A stretch of 34,300 nt of DNA from Candidatus Uhrbacteria bacterium (GTDB lineage Bacteria; Patescibacteriota; Patescibacteriia; UBA9934), in assembly GCA_943359345.1 (NCBI GenBank), contig CALRHE010000008.1, forward strand, positions 1 to 34,300, in the 5' to 3' direction. Positions 873-32,005 of this stretch are shown piece by piece; positions within the stretch are counted from its first letter, which is position 1, and every line of letters begins with the position of its first letter. The position numbers were made by a program, and so were the translations under genes. The notes beneath the pieces are model-generated. The model saw only the letters and a list, made by a program, of their open reading frames with translations, did not search any database and was not told where the DNA came from.

Positions 873-1250
873 ACGGAAAAATACTTATCCACCATTACCT
901 GTCGGAAGTCACCGACAAGTATTTGTGCAATGACATACCAAATTTCTTAAGTCTTGCTAATGCTGTCGGAAGCCACCGACAGTTTTTTAGTTGTTTATGG
1001 CCAAAAGCTCTTGAAGGTTATCGGTGAACAACGTGTGATGAATGCAGAACAGCGATGTTCGTCGGTGGCCACCGAACGAAGACTGACACAACTGTGAGAT
1101 GCGCAAGCATGCAAAGCTGAACTCTCTTTTCAGAGAGCGCCTGCAAACGAGCGATTTCCTGGTGATTTCAAGCTTCAATGTCCAGGTGTCTGACTGGGGA
1201 GTTGGGCATCTGGACTGTGCCTTAGTGCAACTGAACTGGGAAGTAGGAAT

Positions 1251-1715
1251 AGATATTACAAAATTAGATATTAGCAGCTATTAGAAAATAGTCATTAGAT
1301 GTATGTCAGGGCTTTATAGAAAGTTAATTGTTTGGCAAAAGGCGATGCAATTGGTTGAGGAGGTACATCAAATCACGAAACGTCTGCCTGTATATGAAAA
1401 AGCCAACCTCATTGATCAGATATCCCGATCTTCAATTTCAATACCTTCGAATATCGCAGAAGGTCAGTATAGATTTTCAAAAAATCAAAATAAACAATTC
1501 CTGCGCATTGCCTATGGATCATGCGCCGAACTGGACACCCAGCTCACTATCGTTAAACGGTTAGGTTATGTCGAAGAGCATGAAATTGATACATGTGAAA
1601 AGCTACTAGATGAAATTATGCGCATGCTGAACTCGATGCTTAAACATACATCACGATCCCTCTAATATCTACTTCTCTAATAGCTGCTAATATCTAATTT
1701 TGTAATGACTAATCC
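1251..1715 (+). mobile_element. Inverted-repeat element containing a four-helix-bundle gene
   Basis: Perfect 31-bp inverted repeats ATTACAAAATTAGATATTAGCAGCTATTAGA at 1255-1285 and, inverted, 1676-1706, flanking ORF 1303..1665; related ORF-less copy at 21080-21198. Confidence 0.65.
1303..1665 (+). CDS. Four-helix-bundle protein, 23S rRNA intervening-sequence protein (IVP)/Avd-like family
   Basis: 120 aa; LIVWQKAMQLVEEV..., RSSISIPSNIAEG and FLRIAYGSCAELDTQL are hallmark segments of the S23/IVP four-helix-bundle family. Confidence 0.92.
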   Translation: MSGLYRKLIVWQKAMQLVEEVHQITKRLPVYEKANLIDQISRSSISIPSNIAEGQYRFSKNQNKQFLRIAYGSCAELDTQLTIVKRLGYVEEHEIDTCEKLLDEIMRMLNSMLKHTSRSL

Positions 1716-6236: not shown

Positions 6237-7874
6237 ATGGCGCTTAAGCAATTGCTGCAAATTCCATCAGTCAACACATACGTCTTTGACACTGATTTCG
6301 ACGAAGTTGCAAATCTGGTAGTGATTCGGTATGCCTTGCCACCGGGACGTTTGGACGAGCTCCTGGATTTAGTTGATGCTGTAATTGACGGTTCAATTCA
6401 TTCAAACGAAATGCCAAGTTTTATTGAGCAAGCTTTCGGTATTGCACCGGATAAGGCAGAGGCAGCCGCCAAAGACCTTGCCGGGAACTTATTATTGCCA
6501 CTTGCCAATTATTTACCTGATATTGAGCAGACGATCTTGGATTGGGGCGGGCAATTAAAGGATTATCCGATTTTGCGTATCGCTGTGGATGAAAAAGCCA
6601 AATTTATGGCTTTGGATGAAATCATGAAATCATTGAAGATTTCATTTAATCCAGTCCTTTTCAAACGCTTAGTGTTCTTACTCGAACAATATGCTGCAGG
6701 TGATAAAACAGAAGCCTCGCTCAAGACATTTTTTACCCGGTCTCAGAATATTGGTGGCCTGGGATTGAATGAAGATCAGGCCTCGGCTTTGCTCGCGACT
6801 GCTTTGCCACAAGCTGCAAGTTTGCTCGAGCAAAGTAAGCCAGCCTCGGCACCCAAACCGGCTGAAGCATTAACACAAATCGTAGTCGAGCCACCAACGG
6901 TTAATGTTGTGCCTGAAACAACTCCTAAACAAGAGCTTGAAGTTGTGCCTACACACGCTTTGGTGGCAGAAGTACCAATTGTAAATCAGCCAAAGTTAAA
7001 AGCAGTGACTCCAAAAGCTGAGGTTGATCACAGCGAGCTAAAATTGCCAGCCAAAAAGGCTGCCTTGGCTCGTAAACTGACAGCCAGCAGTCAGGATGTG
7101 TTTACGAGTGCTATAACTTTAGCTACCAATCAAGCCTCAGCAGTTCTCAAGAAAAATAAAATTTCAGACAAAGTTTTCGCTGATCTGGCCGACAAAGCCA
7201 TTCGTGGCGTTAGAGATATTTATCAGACTAGAGATCTGGCAGAGCGAGACTGGCACTTAAAAGGTCAAGACTTGGCTACCCTCATGGTTGCCATCACCGC
7301 CGGGGTAGATATGTATCAGAGTGCGCCTCAGGTTAAGTTAAAAGATAAAAGTGAAAAGCATGCCCTGAGCGAAGGCGAAGGGATAAAAGTGTCAGAAGAC
7401 AAGCAACTTGATGCACGTTTTGCAAAGATAACTAAGGGCAATGTCGACACAGTTATCGAGCCCGCTCGGACTCAGTTGACGGTGGGTAGTGCTGTGCCAA
7501 AAACACCTGCCGGCCAACGAAAAATGGTGGACGTCATGAGCACGCATCGGTTAGCGGGTCCAATCGAGCAGCTCGGTAAGCTCTCGACTACAGAGTTCCG
7601 TCGCTTATCTAGTAGTGCCGCTGAAGCTGCTCAGAAAATTGAAGATTTGCTTTTGGCTTTGGAAACAACTGCCTACTCGGAGCGTGTGAAGGGTGTTTTA
7701 GCCTGGCGCAACAGCCCAATGAATCAACTGTATTTACACATCACTGAGGAAGCTTTGTCTCAAAATTTGGCTTTGCCAGAGGTGAGTAGCCGTCGGCGCG
7801 CTGCCGGCAAAGATAGTCTCAGCCCAGCTGAAATTAAGGCCCTTGCTCTTTTAAACACGAAGATACGCTTTTAG
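6237..7874 (+). CDS. Hypothetical protein in T4SS-like operon
   Basis: 545-aa ORF, 18 nt after the preceding stop; soluble, Ala/Lys/Pro-rich middle segment. Confidence 0.75.
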   Translation: MALKQLLQIPSVNTYVFDTDFDEVANLVVIRYALPPGRLDELLDLVDAVIDGSIHSNEMPSFIEQAFGIAPDKAEAAAKDLAGNLLLPLANYLPDIEQTILDWGGQLKDYPILRIAVDEKAKFMALDEIMKSLKISFNPVLFKRLVFLLEQYAAGDKTEASLKTFFTRSQNIGGLGLNEDQASALLATALPQAASLLEQSKPASAPKPAEALTQIVVEPPTVNVVPETTPKQELEVVPTHALVAEVPIVNQPKLKAVTPKAEVDHSELKLPAKKAALARKLTASSQDVFTSAITLATNQASAVLKKNKISDKVFADLADKAIRGVRDIYQTRDLAERDWHLKGQDLATLMVAITAGVDMYQSAPQVKLKDKSEKHALSEGEGIKVSEDKQLDARFAKITKGNVDTVIEPARTQLTVGSAVPKTPAGQRKMVDVMSTHRLAGPIEQLGKLSTTEFRRLSSSAAEAAQKIEDLLLALETTAYSERVKGVLAWRNSPMNQLYLHITEEALSQNLALPEVSSRRRAAGKDSLSPAEIKALALLNTKIRF

Positions 7875-12230: not shown

Positions 12231-12249
12231 AACGCGACACTGTCGCGTT
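12231..12249. promoter_or_regulatory. Candidate Fur/Zur operator, copy 1
   Basis: Perfect palindrome AACGCGACA-C-TGTCGCGTT upstream of a fur-family gene. Confidence 0.8.
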
Positions 12250-12301
12250 ACAATAACAATATATTGATATTTATTAGACTTTTTTAAGATTTATTTCTTC
12301 A

Positions 12302-12320
12302 AACGCGACACTGTCGCGTT
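12302..12320. promoter_or_regulatory. Candidate Fur/Zur operator, copy 2
   Basis: Identical 19-bp palindrome 71 bp downstream of copy 1. Confidence 0.8.
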
Positions 12321-12338
12321 AGTAATTTGAACGTGATT

Positions 12339-18910: not shown

Positions 18911-18943
18911 GGCAACCCGTAGATAGGCCAGGGTTGCTTTTTT
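18911..18943 (+). terminator. Rho-independent terminator after the nudix gene
   Basis: GGCAACCC ... GGGTTGC followed by TTTTTT. Confidence 0.75.
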
Positions 18944-18975
18944 GTTATAACATGTTATCCTCGTCGCTGACGTTG

Positions 18976-21057
18976 ATGGCTATGCCTTTCCATTTAAAAG
19001 ACTCAATTAGTTCAATCATGGGCATTGGGGCGAGCAAGGCCAAAGATTTTGGTCGACTCGGTCTTTTACATTTACGCGATGCGCTGTTTGATTTTCCGTT
19101 TCGGTATGACGACCTGTCGCACGCCGTGGCCATTGATGACGCCAAGCCAGGCAGCAAGGTTACGCTTCAGGGTACGATTGTTTCCATCGATTCACATCGC
19201 AGCCAGAAATCCTGGCGCATGATGGTTACCGAGGCGATTATTGAAGACGGTACGGGCGCTATCAAAGCTATCTGGTTCCACCAGGGTTTTTTGACCAAGA
19301 TTTTAAAGCCTGGTCAGGTTGTGTCTTTGGCTGGCAAGGTCGATGACAAGTATGGTCTGACCCTGATTAACCCTGTTTACGAAATTATTGGCAACGCCAA
19401 GGTGACTAAGGACACGGGCCATATCATGCCGATTTATCGTTTAACCGGTGCTCTGACACAGAAGATTCGTCGCAAGGTTGCCGAAGCGGCTTTAAGTGCC
19501 TTAAAAGAAGTTGAGGACTGGATGCCTGATCAGATTATTCGTGAGGTCGAGCTCAAAGATTTGCCGGCCTCAATTAGCGAGCTCCACTTCCCAGCTTCAA
19601 CTGAGTCAAAAGAAAAAGCTTTACGTCGGCTCAAGTTCGACGAGTTTTTCTTGCACCAGCTTTTGCACGCTAAGTCACGCCGTGAGCTTAAGATGCAGAA
19701 GGCTCCTAAAGTGCCTTTTGACGAAGCGGCTATTAAACAGGCCGTCACAGAGCTGCCGTTTGTGCTAACGGGAGCCCAGAAAAAAGCTATCTGGGCAATT
19801 ATTAAGGACATGAACCGGCCTGAGCCCATGAATCGTTTGTTGGAGGGTGATGTGGGCAGCGGTAAAACTGTGGTCGCGGCCTTGGTCGCCCTGAACGCGG
19901 CCCGGGACGGCTGGCAAACTGCTATGCTGGCTCCGACAGAAATTTTGGCTGAGCAGCACGCGCAGACGTTGCAGCGTTTGTTTGGAGACAAGCTGAAAAT
20001 CGCTTTATACACGCGCACTAAGCGTCGCGTTGGCGATAAGGAAGTCACCAAGGCTCAGCTGTTAGCTGCGTTGAAAAATAACGCTGCTCAAATTGTGATT
20101 GGCACGCATGCTTTGCTGACACAAGATGTACTCTTTGATCGTCTCGGTTTGATCGTGGTTGATGAGCAGCACCGTTTTGGTGTGCGCCAGCGCCAGGCTT
20201 TAAAAGATAAGCAAGGTGACCTAGATGGCATGCCGCATTTGTTATCGATGACGGCTACGCCCATTCCGCGTTCGCTGGCCCTAGTTTTGTATGGCGATCT
20301 TGATCGTTCAATTTTAAACGAGTATCCGGCCGGGCGTAAGCCCATTGAAACTCAAGTTATTGAGCTTGGTCGCGAGCAGCCGGTTTACGACAAAATGCGC
20401 CAAGAAATGGACGCCGGTCGCCAGATTTTTGTGGTCTGCCCTTTGATTGAGGAATCTGACGCTTTGGGTGTGAATTCTGTGTCTCAAGTTTTTAAAGAAT
20501 TCGTACTTGAACCTTTTAAGGGTTATCGCGTAGTCATGTTGCATGGCCGCATGAAAACCAAAGAGAAAGATGATGTCATGCGCAAGTTTGCGGGTGGAGA
20601 GGCTGACATGTTGATTTCGACTACCGTGGTCGAGGTCGGCGTTGACGTGCCCAATGCCACAATTATGTATGTGGAGGGCGCTGAGCGTTTTGGTTTGGCA
20701 CAGCTCCATCAGCTGCGTGGTCGGGTGGGCCGCGGAGAGTATCAGAGTTATTGCTTCTTGCACCCTTCCGGCATACTTGGTGAAACCGCTCGCGAGCGAT
20801 TGTTAGCTATTGAAAACAGCCAAGACGGTTTTGATCTAGCTGAAAGGGATTTACAGTTACGTGGCCCGGGTAATATTTTTGGGACCGAACAATCCGGCTT
20901 TGAGCAGTTTAAGCTCGGCACCATGCATGACATTGATCTGATGTCGTTTGCCAAGGACTTCTCCAAAGAAGTGCTCGACCACAGCCCAGATTTGTTGGCC
21001 TATCCCAAACTCCGCGAGCGATTGTTGCAGTACGTTGATGAGGTGCACTTTGAGTGA
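18976..21057 (+). CDS. recG: ATP-dependent DNA helicase RecG
   Basis: RLLEGDVGSGKTVVAALVAL, VVDEQHRFGVRQR, SMTATPIPRSLAL, TTVVEVGVDVPNATIM, QLHQLRGRVGRGEYQSYC. The ORF-track start (18934) is in the upstream terminator T tract; 18976 or 18982 is more likely. Confidence 0.95.
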   Translation: MAMPFHLKDSISSIMGIGASKAKDFGRLGLLHLRDALFDFPFRYDDLSHAVAIDDAKPGSKVTLQGTIVSIDSHRSQKSWRMMVTEAIIEDGTGAIKAIWFHQGFLTKILKPGQVVSLAGKVDDKYGLTLINPVYEIIGNAKVTKDTGHIMPIYRLTGALTQKIRRKVAEAALSALKEVEDWMPDQIIREVELKDLPASISELHFPASTESKEKALRRLKFDEFFLHQLLHAKSRRELKMQKAPKVPFDEAAIKQAVTELPFVLTGAQKKAIWAIIKDMNRPEPMNRLLEGDVGSGKTVVAALVALNAARDGWQTAMLAPTEILAEQHAQTLQRLFGDKLKIALYTRTKRRVGDKEVTKAQLLAALKNNAAQIVIGTHALLTQDVLFDRLGLIVVDEQHRFGVRQRQALKDKQGDLDGMPHLLSMTATPIPRSLALVLYGDLDRSILNEYPAGRKPIETQVIELGREQPVYDKMRQEMDAGRQIFVVCPLIEESDALGVNSVSQVFKEFVLEPFKGYRVVMLHGRMKTKEKDDVMRKFAGGEADMLISTTVVEVGVDVPNATIMYVEGAERFGLAQLHQLRGRVGRGEYQSYCFLHPSGILGETARERLLAIENSQDGFDLAERDLQLRGPGNIFGTEQSGFEQFKLGTMHDIDLMSFAKDFSKEVLDHSPDLLAYPKLRERLLQYVDEVHFE

Positions 21058-21079: not shown

Positions 21080-21198
21080 AGATATTACAAAATTAGATAT
21101 TAGCAGCTATTAGAGAAGTAGATATTAGAGACTTACGGGTTGGGACTAATTACTATTTTCTAAGTTCTGCTAATATCTAATTTTGTAATAACTAATCC
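21080..21198. mobile_element. ORF-less (MITE-like) copy of the 1251..1715 inverted-repeat element
   Basis: ATTACAAAATTAGATATTAGCAGCTATTAGAGAAGTAGATATTAGAG at 21084-21130 and inverted ...CTGCTAATATCTAATTTTGTAAT ending 21189. Confidence 0.7.
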
Positions 21199-21211: not shown

Positions 21212-22504
21212 TTACTTAAGTACTTCCCGTACCGATTTAATTTCTTTAGGTGTCAAAAATGTTTTCATTCCCAGCCGGTCAGCTTCCTTCAAGCGTCGTT
21301 CTAGAAAGGGAACAGAGCGCACTTCGCCACCCAAACCTAGCTCTCCAATCACCACTGCGTCAGCCGGGAGAGGTTTGTTTTCAACGGCGCTCATGACGGC
21401 CGCGGCCACAGCTAGGTCGGCGGCGTGCTCGCTGATCCGCATACCGCCAACGACGTTCACGAACACGTCCTGGTCGTAAATCTTTACGCCAGCTCGCTTA
21501 CTGATAATTGCGAGCAACATCTGAAGTCGACCGGCGTCGAACCCAGAAGTCCGGCGTACAGGGTTGGGGAAAAATGTTTTGTCGACCAGTGCTTGGATCT
21601 CAACTAGAAACGGTCGCGAACCTTCCATGACGCAAGTGACGACCGAGCCCGGCCCTGGCACTCGTTCCTTAAGAAAACGCGCTGAGGGATTTTCTACCGT
21701 AATTAACCCCTTCTCGGTCATCTCAAAGACTCCGACTTCATCAGTGCTCCCAAAACGATGTTTTGAGGCTCGCAGAATACGATAGGCTGAATCTGGATCA
21801 CCCTCAAGCGTGAGCACGGTATCTACCAGGTGCTCGAGCGTCTTGGGGCCAGCCACCGCGCCTTCTTTGGTGACCTGGCCAATGATCAAGACGGGTATAT
21901 TCGATGTCTTAGCGTAGCCGATAAGTTCTGACGTAGCCGCTCGCACGGCCGTCGGTGTCCCCGGAAAAGCGTCAGCTTCCGAAGTCATCATGGTCTGAAT
22001 GGAGTCGACGATGACCATGCTCGGAGTCAGCTGTTGCGCAGCGGCTATGATAGCTGCAACGTCGACAGTATTTGAAAACGAAATATGTTTAGGCTCGATA
22101 CCCAGGCGTTCAAAACGTAGACGAACCTGACCCTCTGATTCTTCGCCGGAAGCGTAATAAGCCGTTTTACCCTCAGACCGTTTCGAAAAAGCGTCAGCCA
22201 GCTGAGCTACGAGCGTCGATTTACCAATACCCGGTTCGCCAGCAAGCAAGGTCACCGATCCAGGCACGATGCCGCCCCCAAGCACGCGGTCGAGTTCAGT
22301 AAGCTCGGTGGGGATGTGCTTGGTTTGCATGGTCGCTGCCGTCGCTAGCGCTAGCACCGGCGCGGCCTTAGCTTGGGATTTTTTTGCTAAACCTAAAGAC
22401 GACCCTTGGTTGCTGCCCTCGGTGATAGTTCCCCATTGTCCGCATTCATTACAGCGTCCGGTCCATTTGAGATATTGGGTGTCACAGTGCGCACAAGCAA
22501 ACAT
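21212..22504 (-). CDS. radA: DNA repair protein RadA
   Basis: N-terminal CAHC...CNECGQW zinc motif; LLAGEPGIGKSTLV; ASKHRFG motif; Lon-like C-terminus. ATG at 22504 places MFACAHC at the N-terminus. Confidence 0.95.
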   Translation of the reverse strand: MFACAHCDTQYLKWTGRCNECGQWGTITEGSNQGSSLGLAKKSQAKAAPVLALATAATMQTKHIPTELTELDRVLGGGIVPGSVTLLAGEPGIGKSTLVAQLADAFSKRSEGKTAYYASGEESEGQVRLRFERLGIEPKHISFSNTVDVAAIIAAAQQLTPSMVIVDSIQTMMTSEADAFPGTPTAVRAATSELIGYAKTSNIPVLIIGQVTKEGAVAGPKTLEHLVDTVLTLEGDPDSAYRILRASKHRFGSTDEVGVFEMTEKGLITVENPSARFLKERVPGPGSVVTCVMEGSRPFLVEIQALVDKTFFPNPVRRTSGFDAGRLQMLLAIISKRAGVKIYDQDVFVNVVGGMRISEHAADLAVAAAVMSAVENKPLPADAVVIGELGLGGEVRSVPFLERRLKEADRLGMKTFLTPKEIKSVREVLK

Positions 22505-22515
22505 AAACAAGGGGA

Positions 22516-23808
22516 TTAGGCTCCTCCTCGGCATTGTTTGACGTATGTAAAATGCATAAAATCTTTGAGACCAGTCCCTTCGCCTAACCATGTGAAGCCG
22601 TGTTTTTTGAAGATATTAATAATTGCAACCGGTATATCCCCGCCGCCTTTTGTGCACTGCGCTTCGCAGCTCGCCGCGGTGACGCAAGCGCAGGCTGTGT
22701 CACTATTACCATCGAGGCAGTTTTTTGGACAGTTAGGATTCTTGTCTGGGTTTATATCTATGGCAATGCCGAAGGCATGGGGCGAGAGTACATTTGGGGC
22801 ATTTTTATTGCAACGCCAGCTAAAAGTGCCACCAGCAGTATCCCTACCAATATCGTAGGCTAGATTAAGCTTGTCAATGGCGTCAAAAACTGCTTGAAAA
22901 TCGTCCGCTGCTTGAACGTTGACTTGATACCTGCGAGAGCCGTGCTCAATGGTGGTGAGTTTTACGGCACCTTGTGATGAGCCATAAGTATTAAGCAAAC
23001 AGTCCTGATAGGGACTTTGGCCGTATAAAGCTCGCCCGCTACCGGTGCAAGTTGCGGAATCAGAGCCTAACAGTGAGAAGAGCGAATTAAGTGGGATTTC
23101 TTTGATTGCCGGAACAGCCAAGGACTGGAAGGTAGTGGTCGCGGGATTAATAATAAAAGCGATATTATAGGCCAATAAGAGCAGAATAACCCCTGCCACT
23201 GCATTGCCAATACGTTTTTTGGCTTGGTCGACTACATGCGTATCGCCCCTAGCGGTAGCATATTGAATGCCGGCGATCATGAGCATGACAACGGCCACGA
23301 GCGTACCAGCGCCTAATAAGTAACTATACAACGCGTTCACATAGGTGCCGAGCAGGTTGCTTTGCTGAATACCATTTATAACCTCATATCCAACCGGTAC
23401 CCAAGTGCCATCTTTTCTTTCTAGCCATTTTCCTGTGGTATTGTCATATTTCAAAAAACCTGGGATGGGTACGTTTAGCTTAGGGAAGAGCGGGTCCCGA
23501 ACGGCCGTAGATTCAGCGGCATTGTTGCAAGTGAAAATTGATTGAACGTGAACAAGTTTGTCTATCGGAAGTTCAGATACCGCCTGGCATCCCTCTTCGC
23601 ATTCAGTTTTATCGAGAAAACCAACAGCAGAAATATCTTGTTGACCATAGGGTCCGTTCAGAATGGGGTAGCCAAGAACTGGATCGTAACTTCTTGGCCA
23701 GGCACAGGTACATGATGACGCGTCGCAACTCTCGGTGTATGTTGCCGCAGAAACAAACTGCGGTGCGGACAAAGCCAGAAATACGATGATGAGAAAAACT
23801 TTCTTCAC
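22516..23808 (-). CDS. VirB2/TrbC-like double-TM protein fused to an M15-family (VanY-like) peptidase domain
   Basis: Signal peptide; TM pair VAVVMLMIAGIQYATARGDTHVVDQAKKRIGNAVAGVILLLLAYNIAFIINP; M15-like SPHAFGIAIDINPD ... DFMHFTYV. Confidence 0.8.
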   Translation of the reverse strand: MKKVFLIIVFLALSAPQFVSAATYTESCDASSCTCAWPRSYDPVLGYPILNGPYGQQDISAVGFLDKTECEEGCQAVSELPIDKLVHVQSIFTCNNAAESTAVRDPLFPKLNVPIPGFLKYDNTTGKWLERKDGTWVPVGYEVINGIQQSNLLGTYVNALYSYLLGAGTLVAVVMLMIAGIQYATARGDTHVVDQAKKRIGNAVAGVILLLLAYNIAFIINPATTTFQSLAVPAIKEIPLNSLFSLLGSDSATCTGSGRALYGQSPYQDCLLNTYGSSQGAVKLTTIEHGSRRYQVNVQAADDFQAVFDAIDKLNLAYDIGRDTAGGTFSWRCNKNAPNVLSPHAFGIAIDINPDKNPNCPKNCLDGNSDTACACVTAASCEAQCTKGGGDIPVAIINIFKKHGFTWLGEGTGLKDFMHFTYVKQCRGGA

Positions 23809-30640: not shown

Positions 30641-32005
30641 ATGACGATTCCTCGCCACATTTTTAGAACTTACGATATCCGCGGATTGGTGGATACAGAG
30701 ATTACACCGGAATTTGCTTACCACCTTGGTCGGGCCTTTGCGACCTTTATTCGTCGTGAGCTCGGTGGCAAGGCCCCTACGATTGCGGTCGGTTACGACA
30801 TGCGACCAAGCTCGATTCCTTATGAAGCGGAGGTCGTGAAGGGCCTTGTGGCTCAAGGAGCTCGTGTTATTCGCATGGGCCTATTGTCGACGCCTGGGTT
30901 CTATTTCGGCGTTAGTCACGTTGATGCTGATGGCGGTATTCAAATTTCGGCCTCGCATAATCCAGCGGCTTATAACGGTTTTAAAGTTGTTCGTGCCCGC
31001 TCGGTGGCGATTAGCGGTGAGACGGGTATTCAAACGATCGCCGACATTATGGAGAAGGAGGATTTCGAAGGGGAGGGGGTTAATGGGGTTGAGGTTGTTG
31101 AGGGGATTGCTGATAAGCAAGTTGCAGCTGAGATTGAGTTTTCACAAGTAAAAGATTTGCCTAAGTTTAAGCTAGTAGCCGACTCAGCTAACGCCATGGG
31201 AGCTCAGTATCTGGATGTGCTGTTTAAGCATTATGCTTTTGAGGTCACCCGTCTGTACTGGGATTTTGACGGCACTTTTCCGAATCATGAGGCCGATCCG
31301 CATAAGCCTGAAAATAATCAAGCTATTAGTAAAGCAGTCCTTGAACTTGGTGCTGACGTTGGTATTGCGACTGACGGCGATGGTGATCGGATATTTTTCA
31401 TTGACGACACCGGACGGGTGGTCGAACCAGCGATTATTAGCGGGCTTGTAGCCCGAGCCATGTTACGACGTTTCCCAGGGGCCACTATTGGTTATGATAT
31501 TCGTCCAGGCAAAATCACTGAAGATATGATCCGTGAGGGCGGGGGTGTACCGATGGTGACTAGGGTAGGTCACGCCTTGATTAAAGAGGCCATGATCAAA
31601 GCTGGGGCCGTGTTTTCGGGAGAATTGACCGGGCACTTTTATATGAGTATGCCTAGTGGTGTTTACGAAGCGCCGGTAGCCACTATGTTGTTAATTCTTG
31701 CTGAGGTTGCCCGCTCTGGTAAAAAACTGTCTGAGATCGCCGCTGGCCTACGCAAGTATTCATATTCAGGTGAGATGAATTTCAAGCTTGAAGATAAATC
31801 CGGAGCGTTAAGTCGACTCAAGCAACACTTTGCTGACGGTCAGCACTCTGAACTTGATGGTTTATCCATAACTTATCCAGACTTCTGGTTTAACGTGCGG
31901 TGTTCGAACACCGAGCCTTTGCTACGCTTAAACCTAGAGGCAATTGATGACGAGACTATGCAGGCCAGGCTATCAGAGGCAGCTAAGATTATAAATATCG
32001 AGTAG
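30641..32005 (+). CDS. Phosphomannomutase/phosphoglucomutase
   Basis: FRTYDIRG, SASHNPAAYNGFK, TDGDGDRIFFIDD, RCSNTEPLLRLN. Confidence 0.94.
   Translation: MTIPRHIFRTYDIRGLVDTEITPEFAYHLGRAFATFIRRELGGKAPTIAVGYDMRPSSIPYEAEVVKGLVAQGARVIRMGLLSTPGFYFGVSHVDADGGIQISASHNPAAYNGFKVVRARSVAISGETGIQTIADIMEKEDFEGEGVNGVEVVEGIADKQVAAEIEFSQVKDLPKFKLVADSANAMGAQYLDVLFKHYAFEVTRLYWDFDGTFPNHEADPHKPENNQAISKAVLELGADVGIATDGDGDRIFFIDDTGRVVEPAIISGLVARAMLRRFPGATIGYDIRPGKITEDMIREGGGVPMVTRVGHALIKEAMIKAGAVFSGELTGHFYMSMPSGVYEAPVATMLLILAEVARSGKKLSEIAAGLRKYSYSGEMNFKLEDKSGALSRLKQHFADGQHSELDGLSITYPDFWFNVRCSNTEPLLRLNLEAIDDETMQARLSEAAKIINIE

What the first reader, a model, noticed from the sequence alone, without database searches (positions are those of the whole stretch)
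21080..21198. MITE-like, ORF-less copy of the same element between recG and radA, with inner arms flipped
About 20 kb away, 21084-21189 carries the same terminal arms without the gene. Its left inner arm (AGAAGTAGATATTAGAG) equals the right inner arm of the first copy. Its right inner arm (AAAATAGTAATTAG) matches the left inner arm of the first copy (AAAATAGTCATTAG). The outermost bases (left AGAT, right ACTAATCC) keep the same plus-strand orientation in both copies. So the interior is inverted relative to the ends, as recombination across the inverted repeats could produce, and the gene is lost: an autonomous/non-autonomous pair in one window.
Basis: seen in the sequence. Interest (0 to 1): 0.75.

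Follow-up and report, generated by a model that had tools for sequence, protein, structure and literature searches.

The report
Hairpin mobile element and gene-bearing partner
The 119-base hairpin between recG and radA is one of about 20 gene-less copies of a small mobile element whose single gene-bearing copy, 20 kb away, encodes a widespread protein of unknown function (the 23S rRNA intervening-sequence protein); the same layout, a gene between inverted runs of 7-9-base repeats with gene-less copies scattered nearby, recurs in many bacterial phyla and gives that old mystery protein a testable role.

Summary
In detail: 21080-21198 is a strong hairpin (z -8.5) whose arms match those around the ORF at 1303-1665. 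The autonomous/non-autonomous reading is supported and extends well beyond this window. The genome (a 0.73-Mb draft) holds about 20 gene-less copies and one gene copy. [quoted passage not shown] Avd-like four-helix bundle). All four IVP genes of this genome, and most of 111 IVP loci from Patescibacteria, Cyanobacteria, Bacteroidota and others, lie between inverted arms of degenerate 7-9-nt tandem units. Unit sequence differs for nearly every element, and arms recur gene-less in both genomes tested (9 of 9 elements above control). Unit period (7 versus 9) follows the IVP protein tree, not the host. In cyanobacterial plasmids arm-gene-arm is present or absent as a unit (507 nt; 90-92% flank identity). 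Best explanation: a REPIN/RAYT-like pair in which the IVP pentamer recognises its own repeat arms and disperses them in trans. Mobility is shown by comparison; binding and chemistry are inferred.

The parts
21080..21130 (+). left arm of the gene-less hairpin between recG and radA
   Evidence: exact reverse complement of 1660-1706 over 21084-21130
21131..21145 (+). loop, containing the family's conserved ACGGGTTGG core
   Evidence: alignment of 16 gene-less copies
21146..21198 (+). right arm of the gene-less hairpin
1246..1302 (+). left arm of the gene-bearing copy (ATTAGNN heptads)
1303..1665 (+). ORF, 120 aa, 23S rRNA-intervening sequence protein (PF05635, E 2e-38); predicted Avd-like four-helix bundle
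1660..1715 (+). right arm of the gene-bearing copy
18934..21057 (+). recG, left neighbour (convergent)
21212..22591 (-). radA, right neighbour (convergent)

Best explanation
21080-21198 is a non-autonomous copy of a hairpin-armed mobile element whose autonomous form carries one gene, the IVP four-helix-bundle protein (1246-1715). Shown: the family relationship, the arm architecture, gene-less copies for every element tested, presence or absence of arm-gene-arm as a unit in related plasmids, and co-variation of repeat period with protein clade. Inferred: the IVP pentamer recognises the repeated core of its own arms (conserved core plus variable spacer, 7 or 9 nt per unit, about 4-5 units per arm), as single-stranded DNA or RNA or in the hairpin, and brings about the copying of hairpins carrying that core into intergenic gaps, acting on gene-less copies in trans, as a RAYT does for REPINs. 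The chemistry of insertion is not known. IVP has no recognisable nuclease domain, so a host or borrowed polymerase or nuclease is probably used. At the best-resolved junctions about 10 nt of target are replaced and I see no target duplication.
For: About 20 gene-less copies and one gene copy in G000. All four IVP genes of G000 lie between inverted tandem-unit arms. In 73 IVP loci of the same order, flank complementarity is mean 19.6 against 8.3 for cross-locus pairs; 66 of 73 exceed that control's 99th percentile. In 38 further loci, mostly from other taxa, many have the same arms. Non-IVP ORFs: 99th percentile 11.3 in G000 and 13.3 in G041. Lag-7 identity in arms 0.49 and lag-14 0.46, against 0.25-0.29 at lags 4-6. 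Arms recur gene-less: observed/reversed control 25/2, 22/1, 6/1, 7/2 in G000 and 7/1, 9/0, 4/1, 7/2, 5/2 in 400 kb of G041, gene locus included. Period 7 versus 9 on the protein tree: 6 changes against 13.5 for shuffled labels (0 of 500) and 12.5 for within-host shuffles (1 of 500). Presence/absence: 507-nt arm-ORF-arm in Calothrix brevissima absent from Nostoc carneum, Tolypothrix and Aulosira at 90-92% identity; Nostoc edaphicum nrdB-nrdA insertion absent from Calothrix NIES-4105. No Y1 (RAYT/IS200) transposase in G000; no other gene with these ends was found.
Against: No experiment shows IVP binding its arms or moving anything. The period-clade link could reflect arms and gene simply travelling together. 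Presence/absence pairs show the unit as a whole, not which enzyme moved it, and none is from this species; relatives at the recG-radA gap are too diverged for an exact empty site. A sizeable minority of the loci show weak or no arms. The window's own arms score best at lag 10, not 7, because non-heptad blocks interrupt the ATTAGNN units. Unrelated small ORFs occur in the same layout. The genome is a draft, 97.8% complete, of which 702 of 732 kb was scanned by script.
Confidence: 0.6

Rival explanations
1. The hairpins are ordinary MITE/REP repeats moved by an unrelated transposase or by replication slippage, and the IVP gene is cargo that happens to sit in hairpin loops.
For: Only one of about 20 C8-family copies carries the gene, and the gene-less copies share a loop the gene copy lacks. 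Arms also recur as short single tracts without a hairpin. The same layout occurs with unrelated small proteins: GIY-YIG, PDDEXK_3, DUF559.
Against: IVP genes have such arms across phyla while ordinary ORFs of the same size almost never do; period follows IVP clade within the same host; no Y1 transposase in G000 and no other gene shares these ends.
Confidence: 0.22
2. The arms serve the IVP gene itself: its transcript folds with the ORF in the loop, is cut by RNase III as in rRNA intervening sequences, and the protein autoregulates by binding the repeat RNA. Gene-less hairpins are satellite regulatory or neutral relics.
For: Known 23S rRNA IVS have this stem-plus-ORF layout and are excised by RNase III (PMC4990558). 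The upstream arm is purine-biased on the coding strand in 78 of 88, which suggests a strand-specific (RNA or ssDNA) ligand.
Against: Does not by itself explain dispersal of gene-less copies or presence/absence at many intergenic sites. The own 23S hit was a fragment at a contig edge and could not be checked for an IVS.
Confidence: 0.12
3. One reading: site-specific inversion across the inverted repeats flips the interior relative to fixed ends.
For: The two window copies do have that appearance; two further copies have the inner block on the other arm.
Against: Outer bases are variable dinucleotides with no fixed polarity in 17 copies; insertion in both orientations explains the pair.
Confidence: 0.04

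Closest known systems
REPIN / RAYT (REP doublet hairpins and REP-associated tyrosine transposases; PMC3116915, PMC2817692)
   Same: Many gene-less intergenic hairpins per genome, one or a few gene-bearing partners whose flanks share the repeat, repeat type tied to the partner protein.
   Different: No Y1/HUH transposase; partner is a four-helix-bundle protein without a known catalytic site; arms are tandem 7-9-nt units rather than 20-40-nt REPs.
23S rRNA intervening sequences (IVS) with an S23/IVP ORF, e.g. Coxiella, Leptospira (PMC4990558)
   Same: Same protein family; ORF inside a complementary stem; described as a selfish or parasitic element.
   Different: Here intergenic, with gene-less copies in the same genome and arms of tandem heptads; not in rRNA.
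Avd of diversity-generating retroelements
   Same: Same fold (Avd 4dwl_D TM 0.81; DGR RNP 8ube_D TM 0.79); Avd is described as essential to retrohoming (PMC10053308).
   Different: No RT next to the window's IVP gene; the one RT in this genome has its own bAvd.
Cyanobacterial STRR heptanucleotide repeats and TAACTGA heptamers of Beggiatoaceae (PMC4679880)
   Same: Intergenic 7-nt tandem repeats; TAACTGA repeats often lie just upstream of start codons, as several solo tracts here do.
   Different: A search of the TAACTGA paper for S23, four-helix, intervening or Avd terms finds none; the STRR link is recalled and was not tested here.
Prokaryotic MITEs
   Same: Short, intergenic, terminal inverted repeats, multi-copy.
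   Different: No parent transposase with the same ends found.

Membership tests
PF05635 23S_rRNA_IVP | profile match above curated cut-off | tested here: met
   131 bits against cut-off 33.8
PF05635 23S_rRNA_IVP | four-helix-bundle fold | tested here: met
   AF2 pLDDT 92, TM 0.93 to 2gsc_B
PF05635 23S_rRNA_IVP | homopentameric ring | not testable with these tools
   Relative from Xanthomonas described as a homopentamer (PMC4990558); not modelled here
rRNA IVS | located in a 16S or 23S rRNA gene | tested here: not met
   1246-1715 lies upstream of an M23 peptidase gene, 21080-21198 between recG and radA; Rfam finds only tRNAs in the window
rRNA IVS | excision by RNase III | not testable with these tools
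   -
REPIN/RAYT | Y1 (PF01797) transposase partner | tested here: not met
   no match in own genome
REPIN/RAYT | gene-less hairpins sharing the partner gene's flanking repeat, intergenic | tested here: met
   (0 of 21 copies wholly inside a called ORF)
MITE | short, multi-copy, terminal inverted repeats | tested here: met
MITE | target-site duplication | tested here: inconclusive
   none visible by eye at the copies; plasmid empty-site junctions show small target loss instead
MITE | parent transposase with the same ends | tested here: not met
   only the IVP copy was found to share the ends with a gene in the own genome
DGR / Avd | adjacent RT, template and variable repeats | tested here: not met
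   the single RT is at C6:4721-5350, about 10 kb from the C6 IVP and on another contig than the window, with its own bAvd

The most novel reading that the evidence does not exclude
IVP/S23 four-helix-bundle proteins define a bacterium-wide class of mobile hairpin elements without a transposase: a pentameric Avd-like ring reads tandem 7- or 9-nt units in its own inverted arms and spreads them and gene-less satellites through genomes, explaining both the function of this protein family and the origin of many heptanucleotide repeats.
Probability: 0.4. Interest if true: 0.93.

Novelty: new variant of a known kind. Interest (0 to 1): 0.8.

Why it matters
IVP ('S23 ribosomal' or 'four helix bundle') genes are very widespread and have had no assigned function since they were found in rRNA intervening sequences. 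Intergenic heptanucleotide repeats, as in Cyanobacteria and Beggiatoaceae, are likewise unexplained. The data tie the two kinds of observation together, give a simple testable prediction (each IVP binds its own repeat unit; the 7- or 9-nt register is set by the protein), and show presence/absence of the unit in named, sequenced cyanobacterial plasmids where it could be tested.

Tried and rejected
Interior inversion by recombination: rejected after aligning 17 copies. Low-complexity TTAGATATTAG expansion: rejected, since shared non-periodic blocks and reversed-arm controls do not fit it. Known RNA family: Rfam gathering search finds only tRNAs in the window. RAYT: no Y1 transposase in the genome. 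DGR: RT present but with its own Avd, not next to the window's IVP element. Exact empty site at recG-radA: many relatives keep recG and radA side by side and none of those printed shows this hairpin, but RadA identity is 57-87% and the gap sequence is unrelated. Own 23S rRNA IVS: only a fragment at a contig edge. Loose 15-mer matching of arms gave too many chance hits and was replaced by 18-mers. Literature: 10 searches of open-access PMC found no paper linking IVP genes with tandem-repeat arms; subscription papers and preprints are not covered. I did not test whether cyanobacterial STRR families are the arms of IVP elements.

Full report
What was checked. 21080-21198 lies in the 154-nt gap between the convergent genes recG (18934-21057, +) and radA (21212-22591, -). 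It is a hairpin: 38-nt arms 87% complementary, folding energy -44 kcal/mol against -18.5 +/- 3.0 for shuffles. [quoted passage not shown]).

The family in this genome. The own genome (732 kb, 24 contigs, 97.8% complete) has about 20 gene-less copies and one gene copy. An alignment of 16 gene-less copies plus the gene copy, all turned to the same interior orientation, shows arms of ATTAGNN heptads interrupted by fixed blocks and, in the gene-less copies, a conserved loop. Eleven gene-less copies are in + and five in - contig orientation. The outermost bases are TTAGNN with NN = AT, AA, TC, TA or TT on the left and TC, TT, AT or AA on the right, so there is no fixed polarity of the ends. Copies C7:31782 and C11:13419 carry the inner GAGAAG block on the other arm, so arm exchange (for example quasipalindrome correction, inferred) occurs. 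None of 21 copies lies wholly inside a called ORF; 17 are between tandem genes, often filling the gap to within a few bases.

The pattern is general. The genome has four IVP genes, and each sits between inverted arms of a different tandem unit: ATTAGNN (C8, the window), GTAGACN (C6), GTTGACN (C12) and a 9-nt GGGGTT type (C9). In 73 IVP loci of the same order, upstream flank versus reverse complement of downstream flank scores 19.6 on average against 8.3 for mismatched loci, and 66 of 73 exceed the 99th percentile of that control. Ordinary ORFs of the same size have a 99th percentile of 11.3 (G000) and 13.3 (G041), and the highest outliers are mostly IVPs themselves or small nuclease-family ORFs. 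Among 38 IVP loci collected separately (cyanobacterial plasmids, Bacteroidales, Porphyromonas, Oscillospiraceae, Pelotomaculum, Nitrospirae, Campylobacteraceae, Gemmatirosa, other Patescibacteria), many have the same arms; 16 exceed even a cross-locus control that is inflated by shared unit types. The best period is 7 in 52, 8 in 15 and 9 in 16 of 88 scored elements, arms have about 4-4.5 units, and the upstream arm is purine-rich on the coding strand in 78 of 88.

Gene-less partners are general too. With 18-mers and two mismatches, the arms of nine IVP elements in two genomes recur at 25, 22, 6 and 7 loci (G000) and 7, 9, 4, 7 and 5 loci (400 kb of G041), against 0-2 for reversed arms. These counts include the gene locus itself. 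The GTAGNNN family of G041 has seven gene-less hairpins or partial hairpins.

Protein and repeat co-vary. On a tree of 106 IVPs (few columns, many unresolved forks), period 7 versus 9 needs 6 changes; shuffled labels need 13.5 on average (0 of 500 as low), and shuffling only within host genomes gives 12.5 (1 of 500 as low). Nine genomes hold both kinds, so the host does not set the period. This is what recognition of the unit by the protein would produce, but co-inheritance of arm and gene would contribute as well.

Mobility. Comparing cyanobacterial plasmids, the Calothrix brevissima element (arm of TAGGGTG units, IVP ORF, arm; 507 nt) is absent from Nostoc carneum, two Tolypothrix and Aulosira laxa at 90-92% flank identity, in a gap between an integrase gene and the next gene. 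The Nostoc edaphicum element between nrdB and nrdA is absent from Calothrix NIES-4105. At these junctions about 10 nt of target were replaced and no target duplication is visible. The Anabaena 90 element between cas6 and cas4 is absent from Dolichospermum at 99.4% flank identity, but the gap there holds a different palindrome, so that is not a clean empty site. For the window's own copy relatives are too diverged for a clean empty site; recG-radA adjacency is kept in much of the family and no printed relative shows this hairpin.

Protein. The AF2 model (pLDDT 92) matches 2gsc (TM 0.93), 2rld, Bordetella phage Avd 4dwl (0.81) and a DGR RNP entry 8ube (0.79). The Xanthomonas relative is a toroidal homopentamer (PMC4990558). 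A ring that reads a repeated core with free spacers, as TRAP reads (G/U)AGNN repeats (from memory), is the mechanism I would test first; this step is inference.

Other cargo. The same two genomes have the same layout with unrelated small nuclease-family ORFs: GIY-YIG (arms at 12 loci, control 0), PDDEXK_3/GxxExxY (20 against 1; all 15 scorable loci, including the own one, have inverted arms, mostly of TACAGAT- or TACGAAT-like units) and DUF559 (12 against 0 in G041). Either several protein families have independently become partners of hairpin elements, or the hairpin is the primary replicator and these genes are alternative helpers. This weakens the claim that IVP alone is sufficient, and is itself worth study.

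Verdict. Observation confirmed. Interpretation partly supported: the pair is real, the inversion is not. What it works like is a REPIN/RAYT pair; it is not a member, since the defining Y1 transposase is absent. Novelty is judged against open-access literature only.

Noticed in passing
G000 C4:22428 (-); window 7360-7390: GIY-YIG ORF between inverted CCTGAAYGAAGGTGAAGGRTC arms, with about 10 gene-less relatives in the genome; one tract lies inside the ORF 6237-7874 of the window.
   Followed up: partly
G000 C6:13461 (+), loci L270-L285: PDDEXK_3 (GxxExxY) genes of the order sit between long inverted arms, mostly of TACAGAT/TACGAAT-like units, with many gene-less loci in G000.
   Followed up: partly
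G000 C12:2950 (-); G041 C1:442727 (-): DUF559 genes flanked by inverted CCCCCTTT..AAGGGGG-type arms; 12 loci in 400 kb of G041.
   Followed up: partly
window 31071-31103: Tract of the C9-type 9-nt unit (GGGGGTTAATGGGGTTGAGG..) inside the ORF 30641-32005.
   Followed up: no
G000 C6:4479-5594: Reverse transcriptase with a divergent bAvd gene and nearby repetitive ORFs, probably a diversity-generating retroelement.
   Followed up: no
window 12231-12250 and 12302-12321: Palindrome AACGCGACACTGTCGCGTTA repeated directly 71 nt apart upstream of an ORF at 12327; looks like an operator pair.
   Followed up: no
G000 C1:2300 and C1:76858: Two copies of the window family share the left flank GCTARCATTATAGCAAGAG, whose reverse strand reads like a TGNTATAAT promoter.
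   Followed up: no
L231 (G001, recG-radA gap): A same-genus species carries an unrelated heptad-like tract (GGGGATAGGGAATAGTGAGTGGGGAGTAGG) in the same recG-radA gap.
   Followed up: no
G000 C4:11861, C5:24151, C7:7070: A second gene-less hairpin subfamily (TTAGATATTAGGAATTAGATATTAGTAAG arms) with no gene-bearing copy found.
   Followed up: no
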